From: Mucidula mucida | Lineage: Eukaryota > Basidiomycota > Agaricomycetes > Agaricales > Physalacriaceae | Assembly: GCA_015501055.1 (NCBI GenBank) | Contig: JADNYV010000103.1 | Coordinates: forward strand, 61,468-125,467 | Length of the DNA: 64,000 bases | Direction of reading: 5' to 3' | Part shown: positions 19,017 to 64,000 of the stretch, piece by piece | Numbering within the stretch: the stretch's first letter is position 1 | Layout: every line of letters begins with the position of its first letter | Translations under genes and position numbers: made by a program | Notes under the pieces: model-generated | What the model saw: only the letters and a program-made list of their open reading frames with translations | What the model was told of the DNA's origin: nothing | The model's database searches: none

Positions 19017-22000
19017 TCAGAAGTCCAAGTTTCCTTGTCGGCGTTCTGGATCGCTCATCTTGTGCACACGCACATTAGGACCAACAGTAATGTCGCCAAG
19101 GTTCAAAGGGGAGATGGAAATATATTGCCCCGAACCGCCTTGGTTCGCTTTGTCGATCTATCAAGGCGAGTCAGCCACAAACACACACACAACAGCTGCA
19201 ATGCGTACCAGCAGTTTCACGGCTACTTTACGGTCGATGTTATCCATGAACACGTCGAACTCATCTGAAAACACGATGAATACCGGTAGCGATGATACAG
19301 AGAAAGAAGCATGCTACCTAGACATCTTATTGGGCACGAGATCGCGTCCCAAAGGGAAAGCAGGAAGCAGAGAGTAGAAAATGACTTCTCCCCGCCACTC
19401 AAGGACGACGCGTTCGACCCTTGAGATCCACCAGCAGCAGCGTCGTCTTTTGTGACCTGTTTGGATGAGCCTTGAGCGTAAGAAACGAGTGATAAAGACC
19501 GACCAGCATCTCCGACTTCTTCGAGTCATGCTTGAACTCGAGCCTTCCGAAATATCCACGACTCTGCATATTGAATTGGAAGATGATTTTGCATCTCACG
19601 GCAATATGCCTGCGGAACTCGAGCCGTCTATTGGAACGCATCTGCAGAGACCTTTTCAACGTCTAAAAAAAATATACATAAGATAACCGAATTAGTAGTA
19701 GTCAACGAGTTTACATCTTGTAGAGCAATCATTGCCTTGAGCTCTGTACGTGCTGATTGTAAACGATCGCTGGCGGTATTCAATCTTGCCGTCGATTGTG
19801 GCAGTGTAGGGAGCGTTCGGTCCCTGTAGAGGCACGGTTCGCGATGAATCAAAGGGAGTTCGTACGACGTACCCGCTCCGTTCCACAGCGGCCTGCGTGG
19901 AGTCAATGAGCCTTTGAATTTCTTTCGATTTACGTTGTGTCGCAACAGGCGGACAATAGTCAAGAGCTTTCGACCGAGTGTCCTGTAGGACCTTCTAGTT
20001 CGGCGTGATTATTCCCGTGTAAGTGATACGTACTGTGAACACGTTCTCGGCATCTTGTAGGTGTTTTCCCACAAACTCCAGCTCGGCGGTTTCGCGAGTG
20101 AGCTTGTCTTCATAATGCTTGACATTGCCTTGTGACCGGGCGAAATTCTGAGCTGCTTGTTCTATCCTTTCCTGGCAGTATGGTAGCCTTAGTAGTTAAT
20201 CATTTGGAGCCATGCAATGCCATTCACCTGGATCAAATCGCGCTCGTTGCTAAGCGCCTGAAGACTCTCTTCTACTCGACGTAGCTCCGCTCCTACTTGG
20301 TCGTGGTGTGTTTCAAGGTCGCCCTTCTGATGATTGTGGAAGAGGAACTCAGCCTCAAGGACAGTCCTTTCGGCTTCTGCCTCCTGTAATCGATATTATT
20401 TTGGGAGCTTGCGGAAGGAGAGGACACACCTTCAGAGAGTCTTGGAGGGCGGTGATGTTTGCCGGAAGGTCTACATCTGCATCGCTTTGGGCTCTGGTCG
20501 GTTCACGTTGCGCATCACTTTCACGTGTCTGGCCACGAAAGGTGTGAGTACGAGCTTTGGGTGGTTAAATTCAGAGATCTAACTTACCTTGCACGTCTTG
20601 AGCGCTAGAGAGACGGTTCCTAAAGTCCTTCTCAGCTCGGCTTTTTCTGTTCTCAACACTCCGAGGCGAGCTTGTGTGTTCTGACACTCAATTTCGAAGC
20701 AACTGTTTAGAAGTTGATATCATAGCGAGTTGGAATTTAATGGTGTAAACTCACTCCTTCCGCATTTCAGATCAGATTCGTAGCATCGCGTCGATCTGGA
20801 ATAGGTTCGACATTTCACCACCCTCACTAGTCTCTAAATCTCAGCATCTGAAAGAATGTCATTCCCCAAAAAAGTACAGATAACGGCGCACTAGAAATCC
20901 ATCAGCTGTCCAAGCAACATCAGAGCGGTTGTACTGTTGAAGAAGTCTTGCCCCTCCTTCCGCGTCCGAGCGGCGTACGTAGGGATCGGAAATCTGAAGC
21001 ATCGAATCAGCCAGGAGTGTCCGCGATGTAAACGATATGTCAAAGTCTTACAGACAATGCACGGAGAACGGTAAGATATTCTTCAGGCGGTTCTCCTTGA
21101 CTGTAATCAAACATGTCCTTCTCCGCAATTATCACTTGCAAGTTGCGACTAATAGTAACATGGCGTCAGTGATAAGCGCTCCACGACAATAATTCGAAAC
21201 AGATCACATACTTTCCCTTTTCCTAAAGCATCCTTCTGAGTTTCTTCGCATCACGAGTATCTGTAACCGCCCACGAAGTGAGCTGGTTGCTCATCTGCCG
21301 GCGAAGCACGTTGGCCCACTTGCCTGGGTCATCGACCACTAGAAAGGTACCTAGTGGACCAACTGGCATATCGCCGAACCATTCCGTGCGCTTGACCTCC
21401 ATGATAACCTCACGAATGCCCTTACCGCAGGGCGCATACTGATTCTTCTCCCGTTCCTCGAAGTTCCTCAGATCATTCTGACAATTTCTGACATCCCGCT
21501 CCGCCTCATTGATCTTCCCTGTCAAGTCGTTCTGCTCTGTAAGTAGATCTTCCTGTCTTTTTTCGAGATCGGCCTTCTCGGAGTTGGCAGATTCCAAAGT
21601 AATTCGAGCTGCATCCACGACAGCTTCAGCAATCTCGACACGCTGCTGCTCTTCTTCTCGCTGGGACTGCGAGTCGGCTTCTAGTTTCTGCTTTTCGTCT
21701 GCTATTTGAGATTGTATCGTCTCGATATCCACTTTGATGGTGGCGTATCTGCGTTCGTACTCTCGAGTATCTTGCTGAACTGATCATTAATGCAGTCCTA
21801 ATAAGGAGAAACTTCTGTACCTTCCACTCCTCCATTTGTTTGTTGCTATCGCGCACTTGTCTGCGCACGTCCGTCTTCTGCTTCGCCAGATCCTGACGCT
21901 TGTCGTCCTTTGCCTTCAATGCTTGCTCTTCGGCATGTAAGGCTTCGAGTTGTCTCTGCCAAGTTATGTCAAAAGAGCGCTTTGAATCTGACAACGCGTA

Positions 22001-23386
22001 ACCGGACCTTCGCTACATCGAGTCTCTCGTTTATCTGGTCGAGTCTCAACTGCTTCGCGGCATGTTCCTCTGAGCATTGCTCCAGAGCTGACTCTTTATC
22101 AGCAACGAATGCCCACGTGGCTCTTCTTTGAGTTTTTGGAGAGCAATGCGCTGCTCGTCACCTTGCGTACAAGTTCTAACTCTTCTGCTGCTCTAGTTTG
22201 CTCGTGTCGCGGTCATTTATCACGTCTTCCCGATTACGCAGGACAGTCGTGATATTCTCCACGTTTTCATAACAAGCTTGGTACTCATCGTGTAATTTAG
22301 ACAGCTGCGTGCCCGTCGAGAACAACTGTGGAGCCTGAGGAGTTATATCTTGGATGATAATGCAATTGCGACTTACATCGTATTTGGTTTTGGCGTCGGC
22401 TTGCCCTAGGAATCTCCGGGCAGAATCTGACTGTCATTGAATTTGAGAACATCAGCGACGTTACTATCGCACCTTGAGTCAGAACGCTGATAGGGTTATC
22501 GACTTGTATGTTCATGTAATCGCGTATCAAGTTCAATTCGGCTCTTGTGGTGCTTATCATACTCCATCCTTGTCCTTAATCTTCCAGGAAGACCCGTTCT
22601 TGTTGAACTTACGCGTGATGATGATTCTGGCACCATACACAGCGGGTTTGAATGCTTCAGGTCCTCTGTTCTTTATCCAGATGGATACTTCGGACGCACT
22701 GCAGGTGATAGACGATGAGGAAAGCTCATCCGAACTCCTGTGACTTACGGCTGTCCCTCACGTATGAACGACTTGAGACCGCTACCCCGTCCGGTTGAGG
22801 AACTCTTGCCACCTAAGGCAATCGTGATTGCAGAAAGGACGCCGCTCTTGCCGCCTTTGGTGCCACCATCAGATAAACCACGAAAGGAAAGGAATGGTGC
22901 GTACTTCCATTACGGCCTGATAAACGTTTAGACTCAAGTACGAATTGTGATTCTGTCATTACACACCGATGATAAAGTTGACGTCTGGTCCCATCTTGGA
23001 GGTAAGATACTTGTGACACATAAACTGGTGCATTTCGACCTGTTCAATGATACCATGCTCGGATACAACCTGAAAATAGTTGAGGTGTAGCCCAAGTAGG
23101 ACCAACAATGACTTACGCGAGCCAAGCCTTGCCTTGCCTTCAAAGAAGCCTGGATTCGTTCTCTATGCTCTGCCTCAAAATCTTGCTCTGCTTCAGAGTC
23201 GCTGAATTCAGATTCGGATGATTCCGTCTCCGATGAGCCTCCAGAATCGTGTTCCTGAGCACGTCCTTTCCCTTACGTGAAGTTGCCGGAGGCGTTGGGT
23301 ATTCATTCTTCTTCGACGCGCCTACGTTTCGTGGGTGTTCTAGGGCCGATGGAAGGCGGAGATGTTGGGCAGCGTTTACTTGACAT
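19017..23386 (-). CDS. SMC6: SMC6, Smc5/6 complex ATPase
   Basis: Coiled-coil ATPase of the Smc5/6 complex, acting in recombinational repair and chromosome segregation. A probable ATG at 23386 (MSSKRCPTSPPSIGPRTPTK) leads to an acidic N-terminus whose splicing is unclear. Then come FKARQGLA-type sequence, VEMHQFMCHKYL, and [20 protein letters not shown] with TGRGSGLKSFIREGQP. The Walker A loop is assembled from three exons, the middle one 12 nt (22905-22916). Coiled coil follows, then the hinge (WFGDMPVGPLGTFLVVDD), a second coil, FRRHIAVRCKIIFQFN, SSLSGGEKSFSTLCFLLSLW (signature motif) and CPIRCLDEFDVFMDNIDRK (Walker B). The end is VGPNVRVHKMSDPERRQGNL, DF and TGA at 19017-19019. Just before the signature (about 19460) the frame needs either a very short intron or a small indel. 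Identity is certain. Confidence 0.93.
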
Positions 23387-23650: not shown

Positions 23651-25638
23651 TTATGATTCATCCGCGATAACTCGTATTTTTGCTCCTGCTCTGACGGTTT
23701 CCTGTCTCAACAGCGATAACTCGTCAATCAGAGCGGGGAGGAACGTTCCCCGTCCTTGAACGTCGTGCCTTCCTGCCGCCACCTCAGCTGCAATAGTTAG
23801 CACCAGAACACTACGACACATGTCAGGAAAGTAGATAGCTGAGAAATGAATTATGAAAATGTACCCAGCTACAGCACCCAAGAGCGTGGTCGGACTGACA
23901 AGAGATGTAGAGCCTGACATTGCCACGGCGCAGTAGGAAGCGATGCAAGAACCCACGATGCATCCCGATCCTGTGATTTTGCTCATCATTTCATGTCCGT
24001 TAGACAGAGCGACGACAGAAGACCCGTCGGATATATAATCCGTGAGACCAGTCAAAACGATCACACAGCCTACGAAGTGCTCAGTTATTGATGGAAAAGG
24101 AAGCATCGAGCTCACGTTCTCGACGGGCCAAGTTCCGGACAAACGACACAGGGTCTTTGAATCCGGGACCAACGCTGTCAACGCCTTTGCTCTCGACTTC
24201 CCTTGATCCAGCAAGTGTCGCAAGCTCTCCAGCATTGCCCTTAATTACACTTGCTTGCCAGCGGTCCATCAATTCTGTTTTTGCGTTAGTGTCAATCAAT
24301 AGTATTAAAAGCCCTTGGAAACACTGACCATGAACGGTTGACCGACGGAAAGCAGAAGCGCCTATGCCAACAGGGTCGAGAACAACCGGTTTACGAAAGG
24401 AATTCGCATAGTATCCCGTCCTTAACATACCAGCCTTCGATTCGGTGGTCAGAGTACCAATGTTGATCAGACATGCACTGCATATTCTCGCGATATCTTC
24501 CGCTTCTTCAGGAGCAGTAGCCATAATAGGACTAGCTCCCAAGGCCAGCGTTATGTTGGCAGATTGCGTGGCGACAACATTATTGGTGATCTGTAAAACA
24601 GATGTGAAGTGTGGCACGTCTTCTTCTTTACATTTTGACACGCACTTGATGAACAAGGGGGTTCGTAGTCTTCATTTTCGCCATAAGTTCTATGACCTTG
24701 TCCGTAATGCTTTCCGCTGTCAACGGTTCATGGACCGCAGACTGGAAGGAGTTGACATCTAGCCTGAAGTTATCTATAATCTCACGGAGTCCCCGGGCTG
24801 ACGCTTGGGGATCGCGAGATGCTGCAATCTCTGAAACAACTGCTACCCCATCCAAAGCTCGTCCAAGGGCCGAAGTAGTTCCGTGAAGCGTTCTGAGCAA
24901 ATTGGTCCGCTTGATACCGCCTGAAGCTTAGTTCAATGCTTATAGACAAGACCTGCATGTTAATCCTACCTATTGCCACTGCTTTGACATCAGTACCTTG
25001 TAGAACATCCAAAATAGCGCCCACTCCTCTTACGCCGACCAAAGGCGAGATCAATGCCTTGGTCTGAGTCCCGAAGACAGCTCCGATCCCAATGTAGTCC
25101 GCACCACTTTGAACGGCGTCTTTGGCTTCCTGAACCGTGTTACAGGAAATACCGATGATGGAATTGGCAGGAAGAAGTCGGCGGGCCGTTCCAATGGGCA
25201 TATCAGTCTGACCAAGATGAACTCCGTGGGCACCGATAGCAAGCGCGATGTCAATCCTGTCGTTTACAAACAGCGGTACTTGAAATTTATCACATAGCTT
25301 CTTCGAAGCCTCCGCGATCTTAAGGAACTAGAGACGGCCGTCAACGGTCAAGCCATGTCGGTAGTACAGCATTAGACATACATACCTCCGACGTTTCCGT
25401 ATCCTTTTCGCGTATCTGCACGACGGTGACACCGCCTAACAAGGCCTGCATTCGATCCTCAAAATGAGATCTTCGATCTAAACAAACGGCGCGTACCATC
25501 TCCAGCGAACTCAAATAGTCCTAGCGACTATTCAAGTGACAACACTGAGAATAGTTCACGCTTACTGACCATTCCATCTGGCAGCATTGTTCGACCAGTC
25601 ACTAGATAGAGTGAATAGTCTGGTGTTATTTTCGACAT
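23651..25638 (-). CDS. THI6: Bifunctional thiamine-phosphate synthase / hydroxyethylthiazole kinase (THI6)
   Basis: Cytosolic thiamine biosynthesis enzyme. The N-terminal ThiE half couples HMP-PP to thiazole phosphate; the C-terminal ThiM half phosphorylates hydroxyethylthiazole. ATG at 25638 reads MSKITPDYSLYLVTGRTMLP. ThiE motifs: VTVVQIREKD, VNDRIDIALAIGAHGVHLGQ, GISCNTVQEAKDAVQSGADY and IGIGAVFGTQTK. ThiM motifs: HQVRVKM..VLQITNNVVATQ, LALGASPIMATAPEEAED, GTLTTESKAGM, KPVVLDPVGIGASAFR, VIKGNAGEL and KITGSGCIVGSCIA (catalytic Cys region). It ends at a TAA at 23651-23653. There are five or so short introns. No TPP riboswitch-like aptamer was noticed in the leader. It lies between SMC6 and SMC3 on the same strand. 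Confidence 0.93.
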
Positions 25639-25733: not shown

Positions 25734-25851
25734 CTTATTATTCCAGCAGTTCTGCACGACCGAGCACGGCATCAGACTTACTCGTAGTACTACACAACAT
25801 ACATTACAATCAGATAAATAAGCATGAAAGCAACGATAACAATACAGACTA

Positions 25852-30204
<4,353 letters not shown>

Positions 30205-30478
30205 GTCTAATCGCCAGAATCCACGCAGAGTATTGGCTGCGAGAGGTGCCCCGCGGGCTTGCACTGGTCGTGGTGGCGGTCAAGAGGCAAGTTGTGACCA
30301 GACGCGTTCGTGACTGTGGCCGGAGCTGCATACCATATTTGAATTGTTGATCCGGTCCTTCGGCCCCACTGAGAGTTGGAAAGACGCGTCTTTTTTTCGT
30401 CATCCACCACAGCGTCGCCTACCACAACCTCGCCAAGCTCTCCTCAATTTTTTCCATTTTCTTACTTATTCCTTTGCC
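30205..30478. promoter_or_regulatory. Divergent promoter SMC3 / caprin-like gene with two MCB boxes
   Basis: A 274-bp gap between two start codons. ACGCGT occurs at 30302-30307 and 30384-30389. ACGCGT is the Mlu I cell-cycle box bound by MBF in fungi, which drives G1/S genes including cohesin subunits in yeasts. Use by SMC3 is inferred. Confidence 0.5.
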
Positions 30479-61891: not shown

Positions 61892-64000
61892 TCAAGCCGG
61901 AAGAAGTCCCAGATGGTGAGCGAAGTGTTTTGCCTTCGTGCTTGGAAGGGCTTTCGTCAGGATGTCCGCGACCATGTCCTCGGTGGGACAATAGATGAGA
62001 CAAATGTCTCCGTTCTGGATGGAGTACCAAATAAAGTGGTACCGGATGTCGATGTGTTTGGTGCGCGCGTGGAATTGGCCGAGTTTGGCGTGAGCGAGGG
62101 CAAGCGCGGATTGATTGTCGTCGTAGAGAATAATGGGGTACTCCAGTGGTGCGAAAAGTTCTGAGAGGAAATGACGCGTCCACATGGCTTCCTTGCCGGC
62201 ATACATTAACGCAACATATTCGGCCTCGGTAGTGGAGAGAGCGACGAGTTCCTGCTGTTTAGATGACCAGGAAACGGCGCCGCCGTCAATGAGGAATGTG
62301 TACCCCAAAATAGCTTTCCTGTTGTCAAGCGACATTCCGTCTGCATCAACATATCCTTCTAATCCTTGATTTCCTTCCTCTCCTCCATAAGTCAGCCTCC
62401 AGCTGCGAGTTCCTTTGAGATAACAAAGTACGCGCTTGGCCGCTTCCCAATGCGGCCTCCCAGGATTGTTGGAGAAACGAGAGAGGATAGTGGCCGTGTA
62501 TGCTATATCAGGCCGCGTGCCTGTGGAAGTCCAGATCAAAGATCCGACCAGCGCGCGATATGGACACCGAGACATTTCTGCTATCTCCAGCGGATCAGTT
62601 GGACATTGGTCGCGAGAGAGGGATGTTGTCGGGTCCAGAGAAATAGCAGATGGTTTACAATTTTCCATGTCAAACCGTTGCAACACAGAGTCAATGTAGG
62701 ATGTCTGGTTCAAAGAAATTGACCTTGTGGACCTATCCCTGATGATCTCCATACCAAGAAGCCAGTTGATAGGCCCGAGCAGCGTGACTTTGAACAACTG
62801 AGCAATGCGTTCCTGCACGTCGTCAATGAGGGATGCTGAACTGCCCGTGATGGTGCAGTCGTCGACGTGTATCGCGAGAATGATGATGTCCGCGCCTTGG
62901 ACGAGTCGGAAAACCGCGTGATCTTTCTTGAGTGCAGTAAAACCAAGTGTTGCGAGTGCCATGGTAAGCTTCTCGTACCATTTACGAGAGCTCTGCTTCA
63001 AACCATACATGGTCGAAGCACGTACTTCTGGCGATCCGCGAATTCAAAGTCTGGCGGTTGCTCCATATAGATCTCCTCGTTGTCATCAGATTCTCCATTG
63101 AGAAACGCGCCGTGGAAATCGAAAACTTTGATATCCCAATCATTTTGAGCGGCAATGGAGAGGATGATACGGAGGGCGGCGAGTTTAGCAACGGGTGCAA
63201 AGGTGACGAAGTAGTCGACGCCCTCAACTTGGGTGAATCCTTGCGCGACGAGTCGGGCCTTGTACTTGTCAATGACTCCGCCTGACTTCTTCTTGATGCG
63301 CAATACCCATTTGGAACCAATAATGTTCCGATCATCGGGTCGCGGCACGAGTTGCCATGTGCCGGCGTCTATTAACGTCTTGATTTCTTCCTCGATTGCT
63401 GTTTTCCACTGCGGCCAATCTGCTCGCTTCTTTGCTTCCTCAAATACGGGCTCGATAGCCTCCGACTCAGCAATAGCGGCTGCCATGGCCATCTCGACTT
63501 GGTTTGGCTCTGGGATATCAATATAGCCATTGTCAACACTGCCCGCGGATGCCTCACGCGAGGCTGTGGACGACTTCTTCGCTTCTGCCATCTCCTGGAC
63601 TTTTCTCGATGGCTTCCGTTCGCGGCGGTCACTGCGTATGTCCGCAGGATCAAGTCCTTCACGACGGAGTAGTCCAGTCACGAAGTCGGGCATAGTGGAC
63701 GTGTCAGGTTGGGATGAAGCAGATGTGGATGGAATGGGAGCTGTTGTGGATGAATTGGATGGTGCAGGAGGTGATGAAGATGTTGCAGAGGGTGTAGAAG
63801 GTGTGTTTTGCGCATTTTGAACGCCAGATGTTTGCTGAATGCTTTCCTTCCCTTTCTCCCCCTCATTCAGCACTGTATGCGGCAGTTGTACCTCCACAGA
63901 GTTGTCGAATTTAACGCTTCTTTTGACCGCAATAGACCGATTATCAGGCCAGTAAATCCTATGGCCACTGCTGTCTCCGTCAAAGCCCAGCCAACGACCA
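61892..64000 (-). pseudogene. copia pol: integrase C-terminus, RT and RNase H, frameshifted
   Basis: From the right edge: GRWLGFDGDSSGHRIYWPDN (integrase C-terminal motif), then a Ser/Pro-rich linker. RT follows with WKTAIEEEIKTLIDAGTWQL, NIIGSKWVLRIKKKSGGVID, KYKARLVAQGFTQVEGVDYF and DIKVFDFHGAFLNGE. At about 63003-63010 the frame breaks between KYVLR and MYGLKQSSRKWYEKLTMALA; one base is missing. RT continues with AIHVDDCTITG (HVDD in place of YVDD) and LLGMEI. RNase H has GYVDADGMSLDNRKAILGYT, SSKQQELVALSTTEAEYVAL and HIDIRYHF, ending HHLGLLPA at 61892. Apart from the frameshift it is well preserved. Confidence 0.88.

What the first reader, a model, noticed from the sequence alone, without database searches (positions are those of the whole stretch)
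22855..22966. 12-nt microexon encoding the Walker A loop of SMC6
The P-loop GRNGSGKS of SMC6 is assembled only if a 12-nt exon (22905-22916) is included between two introns of exactly 50 bp each (22917-22966 and 22855-22904). Both have GT..AG ends, and the frame is G / GC CGT AAT GGA A / GC GGC AAG AGC. Skipping the microexon would delete the core of the ATP-binding loop in frame, giving an ATPase-dead or dominant-negative form. A microexon at the most critical site of an essential gene is unusual, and automated gene callers would miss it.
Basis: partly seen in the sequence, partly recalled or inferred. Interest (0 to 1): 0.75.

Follow-up and report, generated by a model that had tools for sequence, protein, structure and literature searches.

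The report
Tiny exon inside SMC6's ATP loop
In mushrooms and their kin, the ATP-binding loop of the chromosome protein SMC6 is completed by an exon of only 12 bases that looks old, widely kept and sometimes missed by gene annotation; the copy in this window is a second, fast-changing SMC6 gene that reads as broken further on.

Summary
On the minus strand a 12-nt exon (22905-22916) between two 50-nt GT-AG introns completes the Walker A loop GRNGSGKS of an SMC6 gene; simulated gaps held such an exon 10 times in 1,000,000.

It is not peculiar to this gene. The genome's second, intact SMC6 (SMC6-A, contig C116, 1144 aa) has the same 103/12/106-nt exon trio. Of 149 agaricomycete proteins listed by two searches, 13 lack exactly the four microexon residues; a skip-form search adds 8, together spanning five orders. 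Five of five intronless, cDNA-like contigs include them. I conclude: an ancient, normally constitutive microexon, probably spliced by intron definition.

The framing needs correcting. The genome is Mucidula mucida. The window gene is SMC6-B, a fast-evolving Physalacriaceae paralogue; against its intact Hymenopellis radicata orthologue it shows 10 frameshifts, one stop and missing codons, from assembly error or recent decay, undecided. The deposited model includes the microexon, so annotation did not miss it here. Nothing supports regulated skipping or a dominant-negative isoform. It is a conserved gene-structure oddity and an annotation hazard.

The parts
22905..22916 (-). 12-nt microexon GCCGTAATGGAA, coding the R-N-G core of GRNGSGKS (phase 1 on both sides)
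   Evidence: chance 10 of 1,000,000 simulated gaps
22917..22966 (-). 50-nt upstream intron, GTGTGT..TATCAG
22855..22904 (-). 50-nt downstream intron, GTACGC..CCAAAG; its 3' splice site scores lowest of the 38 introns compared
22967..23069 (-). 103-nt exon before the microexon (..VNFIIG); the same length in SMC6-A
22749..22854 (-). 106-nt exon after the microexon (GKSGVLSAITIALGG..); the same length in SMC6-A
19020..23386 (-). SMC6-B gene of Mucidula mucida, head, hinge and tail; reads with 10 frameshifts, one in-frame TAG (21225) and three stretches of missing codons against H. radicata P0121
   Evidence: with SMC6-A as guide 6 frameshifts and 1 stop

Best explanation
The 12-nt segment is a genuine, constitutive, evolutionarily old microexon of the agaricomycete SMC6 gene. 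The P-loop codons are cut by two phase-1 introns of about 50 nt, leaving an exon that codes only for residues 2-5 of the 8-residue Walker A loop. Each short intron is most likely recognised as a unit (intron definition: the 5' splice site is paired with the branch point and 3' splice site across the intron), so the exon needs no exon-definition machinery and is included by default. Skipping would give the in-frame form NFIIG-GKS, which should not bind ATP; here it is seen only in gene models. The window carries the exon in SMC6-B, a fast-evolving duplicate from within Physalacriaceae, while the intact SMC6-A with the same microexon presumably does the essential work. Shown: exon geometry in both genes, the intact second gene, inclusion in cDNA-like contigs of relatives, skipped models in five orders. 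Inferred: inclusion in Mucidula mRNA, intron definition, age of the exon.
For: Same 103/12/106-nt exon trio and phases in the intact paralogue SMC6-A. Of 179 listed proteins, 150 include [H/R]NGS in normal context and 21 lack exactly those four residues; 13 of these 21 are among the 149 of the two ordinary searches, 8 among the 30 new ones of a search made with a skipped form. Lentinula edodes is annotated both ways (P0074 includes, P0154 skips), so skips look like annotation errors. Five of five 'lgn' proteins on contigs of 3.5-3.7 kb, too short for about 19 introns, include the residues; one (P0035) is 94% identical to the second SMC6 of Armillaria nabsnona. Introns of both genes are 42-63 nt. 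PMC8378409 (passages): small exons depend less on PRP-40 when flanking introns are short.
Against: No RNA reads of Mucidula were available. Genomic DNA of other species was not available, so the exon there is inferred from gene models. That 'lgn' contigs are transcripts is inferred from length alone. The 3' splice site of the downstream SMC6-B intron is the weakest of 38. Intron definition was not tested.
Confidence: 0.85

Rival explanations
1. The microexon is an alternatively spliced switch: regulated skipping makes an ATP-dead SMC6 that poisons or tunes the SMC5/6 complex.
For: 12 nt keeps the frame on skipping; the exon is kept over long time; the downstream 3' splice site of SMC6-B is weak. 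A glucose-dependent microexon switch is reported in Trichoderma Xlr2 (PMC11121469, abstract start and passages).
Against: 5 of 5 cDNA-like proteins include it; the one species seen with both forms (L. edodes, P0074 and P0154) fits annotation error; the splice sites flanking the exon in SMC6-A are average or better.
Confidence: 0.06
2. The window SMC6-B is a decaying pseudogene, so its microexon is a relic without function.
For: 10 frameshifts, one stop and missing codons against P0121, while SMC6-A aligned to a 52% identical guide shows 0 and 0 and neighbouring genes look whole (SMC3 by eye). At columns at least 95% conserved, 7 changes private to M. mucida B against 1 private to H. radicata B; tip 0.1 against 0.037.
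Against: Away from the breaks M. mucida B is no less family-like than H. radicata B (47 against 49 of 104 differences); Tajima counts 32:27 and 30:24, though 30:17 with a third outgroup; the 21 introns placed with P0121 all have GT-AG ends. Breaks lie only in 23311-22120 and 21225-20769, which also fits a bad assembly patch.
Confidence: 0.5
3. There is no microexon: a single 112-nt intron is removed and the gene has no canonical P-loop.
For: Only that no transcript of this gene was available, and that 21 of 179 gene models elsewhere read this way.
Against: Chance of about 1e-5 per gap, the same arrangement in a second gene, and 150 of 179 proteins with the motif in normal context.
Confidence: 0.02

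Closest known systems
Microexons of Phanerochaete chrysosporium P450 genes (PMC1184071, three passages)
   Same: Agaricomycete; exons coding 2-10 aa between introns of 45-55 bp.
   Different: Different gene family; those lie in many P450s and were not tied to one conserved catalytic motif in the passages I saw.
One-nucleotide exon of Fusarium CYP621A (PMC12940212, abstract and Introduction)
   Same: Tiny exon needed to build a conserved motif (PKG), missed by gene callers, kept across species; there backed by reads.
   Different: Ascomycete P450; 1 nt, so omission shifts the frame, whereas 12 nt does not.
Trichoderma virens Xlr2 microexon switch (PMC11121469, abstract start and passages)
   Same: Fungal microexon in the coding part.
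   Different: Inclusion is regulated by glucose there; no regulation is shown here.
PRP-40-dependent microexons of C. elegans and mouse cells (PMC8378409, passages)
   Same: Exons too small for exon definition, with intron definition proposed.
   Different: Animal, long flanking introns, neuronal regulation; here both introns are about 50 nt.
SMC6 (solved chains)
   Same: Head aligns over 192 residues (E 8.1e-48); P-loop, LSGGEKS and DEFDVFMD present.
   Different: SMC6-B is strongly diverged: 50 of 238 scorable conserved columns changed, against 2 of 242 in SMC6-A.

Membership tests
SMC6 | Closest to SMC6 rather than other SMC chains | tested here: met
   SMC6 8.1e-48, best SMC5 1.8e-11; nearest proteins are SMC6-type
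SMC6 | Walker A, signature (LSGGEKS) and Walker B (DEFDVFMD) motifs; motif names recalled | tested here: met
   all three readable in the window
SMC6 | Single open reading frame after splicing | tested here: not met
   10 frameshifts, 1 stop in this assembly for SMC6-B; met for SMC6-A
SMC6 | Works in an SMC5/6 complex | not testable with these tools
   needs experiment
Microexon (27 nt or less) | Length and flanking spliceosomal introns | tested here: met
   12 nt, GT-AG on both sides, 50 nt each; size limit as in PMC8378409 abstract start
Microexon (27 nt or less) | Included in mRNA | tested here: inconclusive
   5 of 5 cDNA-like contigs of relatives; no Mucidula RNA
Microexon (27 nt or less) | Evolutionary conservation | tested here: met
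   DNA of SMC6-A; other species by inference from models
Regulated microexon | Inclusion varies with condition or cell type | not tested
   no RNA data
Pseudogene (SMC6-B in M. mucida) | Disabling changes plus relaxed constraint | tested here: inconclusive
   disabling changes yes; relaxed constraint away from them no, 7 against 1 private conserved changes

The most novel reading that the evidence does not exclude
Agaricomycetes keep the SMC6 P-loop core on a 12-nt exon because its in-frame skipping is used, for example in dikaryotic or meiotic cells, to make an ATP-dead SMC6 that tunes SMC5/6; in Physalacriaceae a duplicated, fast-evolving SMC6-B with the same exon has become a dedicated partner or antagonist.
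Probability: 0.05. Interest if true: 0.8.

Novelty: new member of a known kind. Interest (0 to 1): 0.42.

Why it matters
It shows how small and how critically placed a constitutive exon can be in fungi with 50-nt introns, and it is a natural test of intron definition at its size limit. In practice, 13 of 149 listed agaricomycete SMC6 proteins lack the Walker A core apparently only because the gene model skipped the microexon; such models could be mistaken for ATP-dead paralogues.

Tried and rejected
One 112-nt intron with no microexon: rejected (and the same exon in SMC6-A). Special meaning of two introns of exactly 50 nt: rejected. Uniform assembly error as the cause of the SMC6-B frameshifts: disfavoured, since SMC6-A aligned without one and neighbours look whole; a local bad patch remains possible. 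SMC6-B as sister of the Hymenopellis/Mucidula A copies alone: AU p 0.015; one duplication shared with the Armillaria/Guyanagaster second copies: not rejected, p 0.54 (which used H. radicata B only, on a long branch).

Paper searches that gave nothing on the point, in a library of open-licence PMC papers only: SMC6+microexon, 0 papers; SMC6+Armillaria, 0; at least 4 of SMC6/Walker A/exon/intron/basidiomycete, 31 papers of which 10 were listed, none on SMC6 gene structure by title; microexon+Agaricomycetes, 3, none on SMC6 by title; annotation+microexon+mushroom, 10, none relevant by title; SMC6+Walker A+dominant negative, 2.

Full report
What is there. The minus strand of 23386-19020 encodes an SMC6 head, hinge and tail. 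The P-loop is split as ATC ATC G | 50-nt intron | GC CGT AAT GGA A | 50-nt intron | GC GGC AAG AGC, giving [13 protein letters not shown] protein-to-DNA alignment that I wrote (GT/GC-AG introns, frameshift and stop penalties) found both introns without being told of them, with SMC6-A, P0121 and P0122 as guides. In 1,000,000 simulated 112-nt gaps, 10 held a 12-nt exon that would complete the motif.

Whose gene it is. The nearest proteins are P0121 of Hymenopellis radicata (82%; 1127 aa) and P0122, CPB85DRAFT_1438661 of Mucidula mucida (86%; 967 aa), whose contig has the same length as the window's, 125,467 bp. P0122 aligns to the window with 967 identities in 969 positions, so the genome is M. 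mucida (Agaricales, Physalacriaceae). P0122 includes the microexon. It passes over the frameshifts by extra introns and so loses conserved residues; my alignment places these near 23325-23272, 22562-22473, 22180-22088, 21267-21223 and 20891-20681.

A second SMC6 gene. Searching the genome with the window's head and hinge found another locus on contig C116 (63, 67 and 78% identity over three head stretches, 32% over the hinge). Spliced by hand, it is an open 1144-aa SMC6 with 19 introns of 42-56 nt, 94% identical to H. radicata P0001. Its P-loop is split in the same way: G | 52 nt | GTCACAACGGCA | 48 nt | GT GGC AAG AGC. The exons on either side have the same lengths in both genes, 103 and 106 nt. 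Aligned to a 52% identical guide (P0036), SMC6-A shows 0 frameshifts and 0 stops.

How widespread the microexon is. I classed the 179 proteins listed by three searches (each lists at most its best 120): 150 include [H/R]NGS in normal context, 2 include it in odd context (P0107, P0149), 21 lack exactly these four residues, and 6 have other sequence there (P0031, P0070, P0117, P0132, P0164, P0179). The two ordinary searches give 149 of these, with 13 exact skips; the third used a skipped protein as query and so enriches for skips (8 of its 30 new proteins). Skips occur in Armillaria, Amanita, Mycena, Marasmius, Volvariella, Tephrocybe, Gymnopilus, Lentinula (2), Suillus (2), Boletus, Butyriboletus, Melanogaster, Pisolithus, Jaapia, Panus, Hermanssonia, Amylocystis and Lactarius (2). 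I looked up one species each for Jaapiales, Polyporales, Russulales and Boletales; the placing of the other genera is recalled. A model is most simply explained as losing exactly these residues if they form their own exon, so I infer the same exon there. Lentinula edodes is annotated both ways (P0074, P0154). Five 'lgn' proteins lie on contigs of 3498-3708 nt for coding sequences of about 3390-3450 nt and include the residues, 5 of 5; I take these to be transcript assemblies. Their nearest named relatives are Suillus, Armillaria (second copy), Pleurotus and Lactarius at 93-97%; the fifth has none close.

Mechanism. I scored 38 introns: 19 of SMC6-A and 19 of the 21 that the P0121 alignment gave for SMC6-B (two between frameshifts left out, one with its donor moved to that of P0122). 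They are 42-63 nt. With such introns splice sites can be paired across the intron; PMC8378409 (passages) reports that shortening a flanking intron relieves a microexon's need for PRP-40. The sites around the microexon are mostly average; the SMC6-A upstream donor is strong (95th percentile) and the SMC6-B downstream acceptor is the weakest of 38. I infer constitutive inclusion by intron definition. Skipping would keep the frame and leave GGKS in place of GxNGSGKS; that this would abolish ATP binding follows from general knowledge of P-loops (PMC6039025, passages, says condensin ATPase-motif mutants tested till then were inviable). I found no evidence that skipping is used.

State of the window gene. 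Against P0121 it has 10 frameshifts, an in-frame TAG at 21225 and three stretches of missing codons (13, 5 and 7). Frameshifts and stop lie in 23311-22120 and 21225-20769. For decay: clean SMC6-A and neighbours (SMC3 by eye), 7 against 1 private changes at conserved columns, and a longer tip (0.1 against 0.037). Against: away from the breaks M. mucida B is no less family-like than H. radicata B (47 against 49 of 104 differences in 789 positions; without masking 69 against 64, and residues not seen elsewhere 29 against 16, p 0.07); Tajima counts are 32:27 and 30:24 with two outgroups, 30:17 with a third. The read-through of SMC6-B was guided by P0121, which favours likeness to it. I cannot decide between a local assembly fault and very recent loss.

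Duplication. Both B copies are far more diverged than the A copies at 242 columns conserved in at least 95% of the others (changes: M. mucida B 50 of 238, H. radicata B 44 of 242, A copies 2 of 242 and 5 of 239). HymB falls within Physalacriaceae plus Cylindrobasidium (support 95/99), and one duplication shared with the Armillaria and Guyanagaster second copies is not rejected (p 0.54). In the larger tree, rooted at the midpoint, the B pair instead fell outside all others on a stem of 1.3, as a long branch may; its exact place is unsure.

Verdict. The claims about an essential single gene, about annotation missing the exon here, and about a dominant-negative isoform are not supported.

Noticed in passing
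window 19020-23386 and G000:C116:168841-173224 (-): SMC6 is duplicated in Physalacriaceae; the B copy evolves much faster yet keeps P-loop, LSGGEKS and DEFDVFMD. Possible second SMC5/6 complex; I found no paper on it.
   Followed up: partly
window ~25800-30300 (-): An SMC3 gene (hinge 27403-28344) lies a few kb upstream of SMC6-B, with a thiamine-synthesis gene (TMP-TENI and HK domains, 23654-25327) between; by eye SMC3 reads intact.
   Followed up: partly
P0029/P0129, P0052/P0141, P0102/P0137, P0024/P0179, P0017/P0061: Four Mycena species and Hypsizygus marmoreus also have two listed SMC6 proteins that pair within species in the tree, so SMC6 may duplicate repeatedly in Agaricales.
   Followed up: no
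G000:C116, SMC6-A intron 7 (50 nt): Best read as a GC-AG intron (GCACGC..TTTAG), chosen by hand and again by the alignment.
   Followed up: partly
window 61895-63043 (-): Reverse transcriptase RVT_2 domain, copia-type by recall.
   Followed up: no
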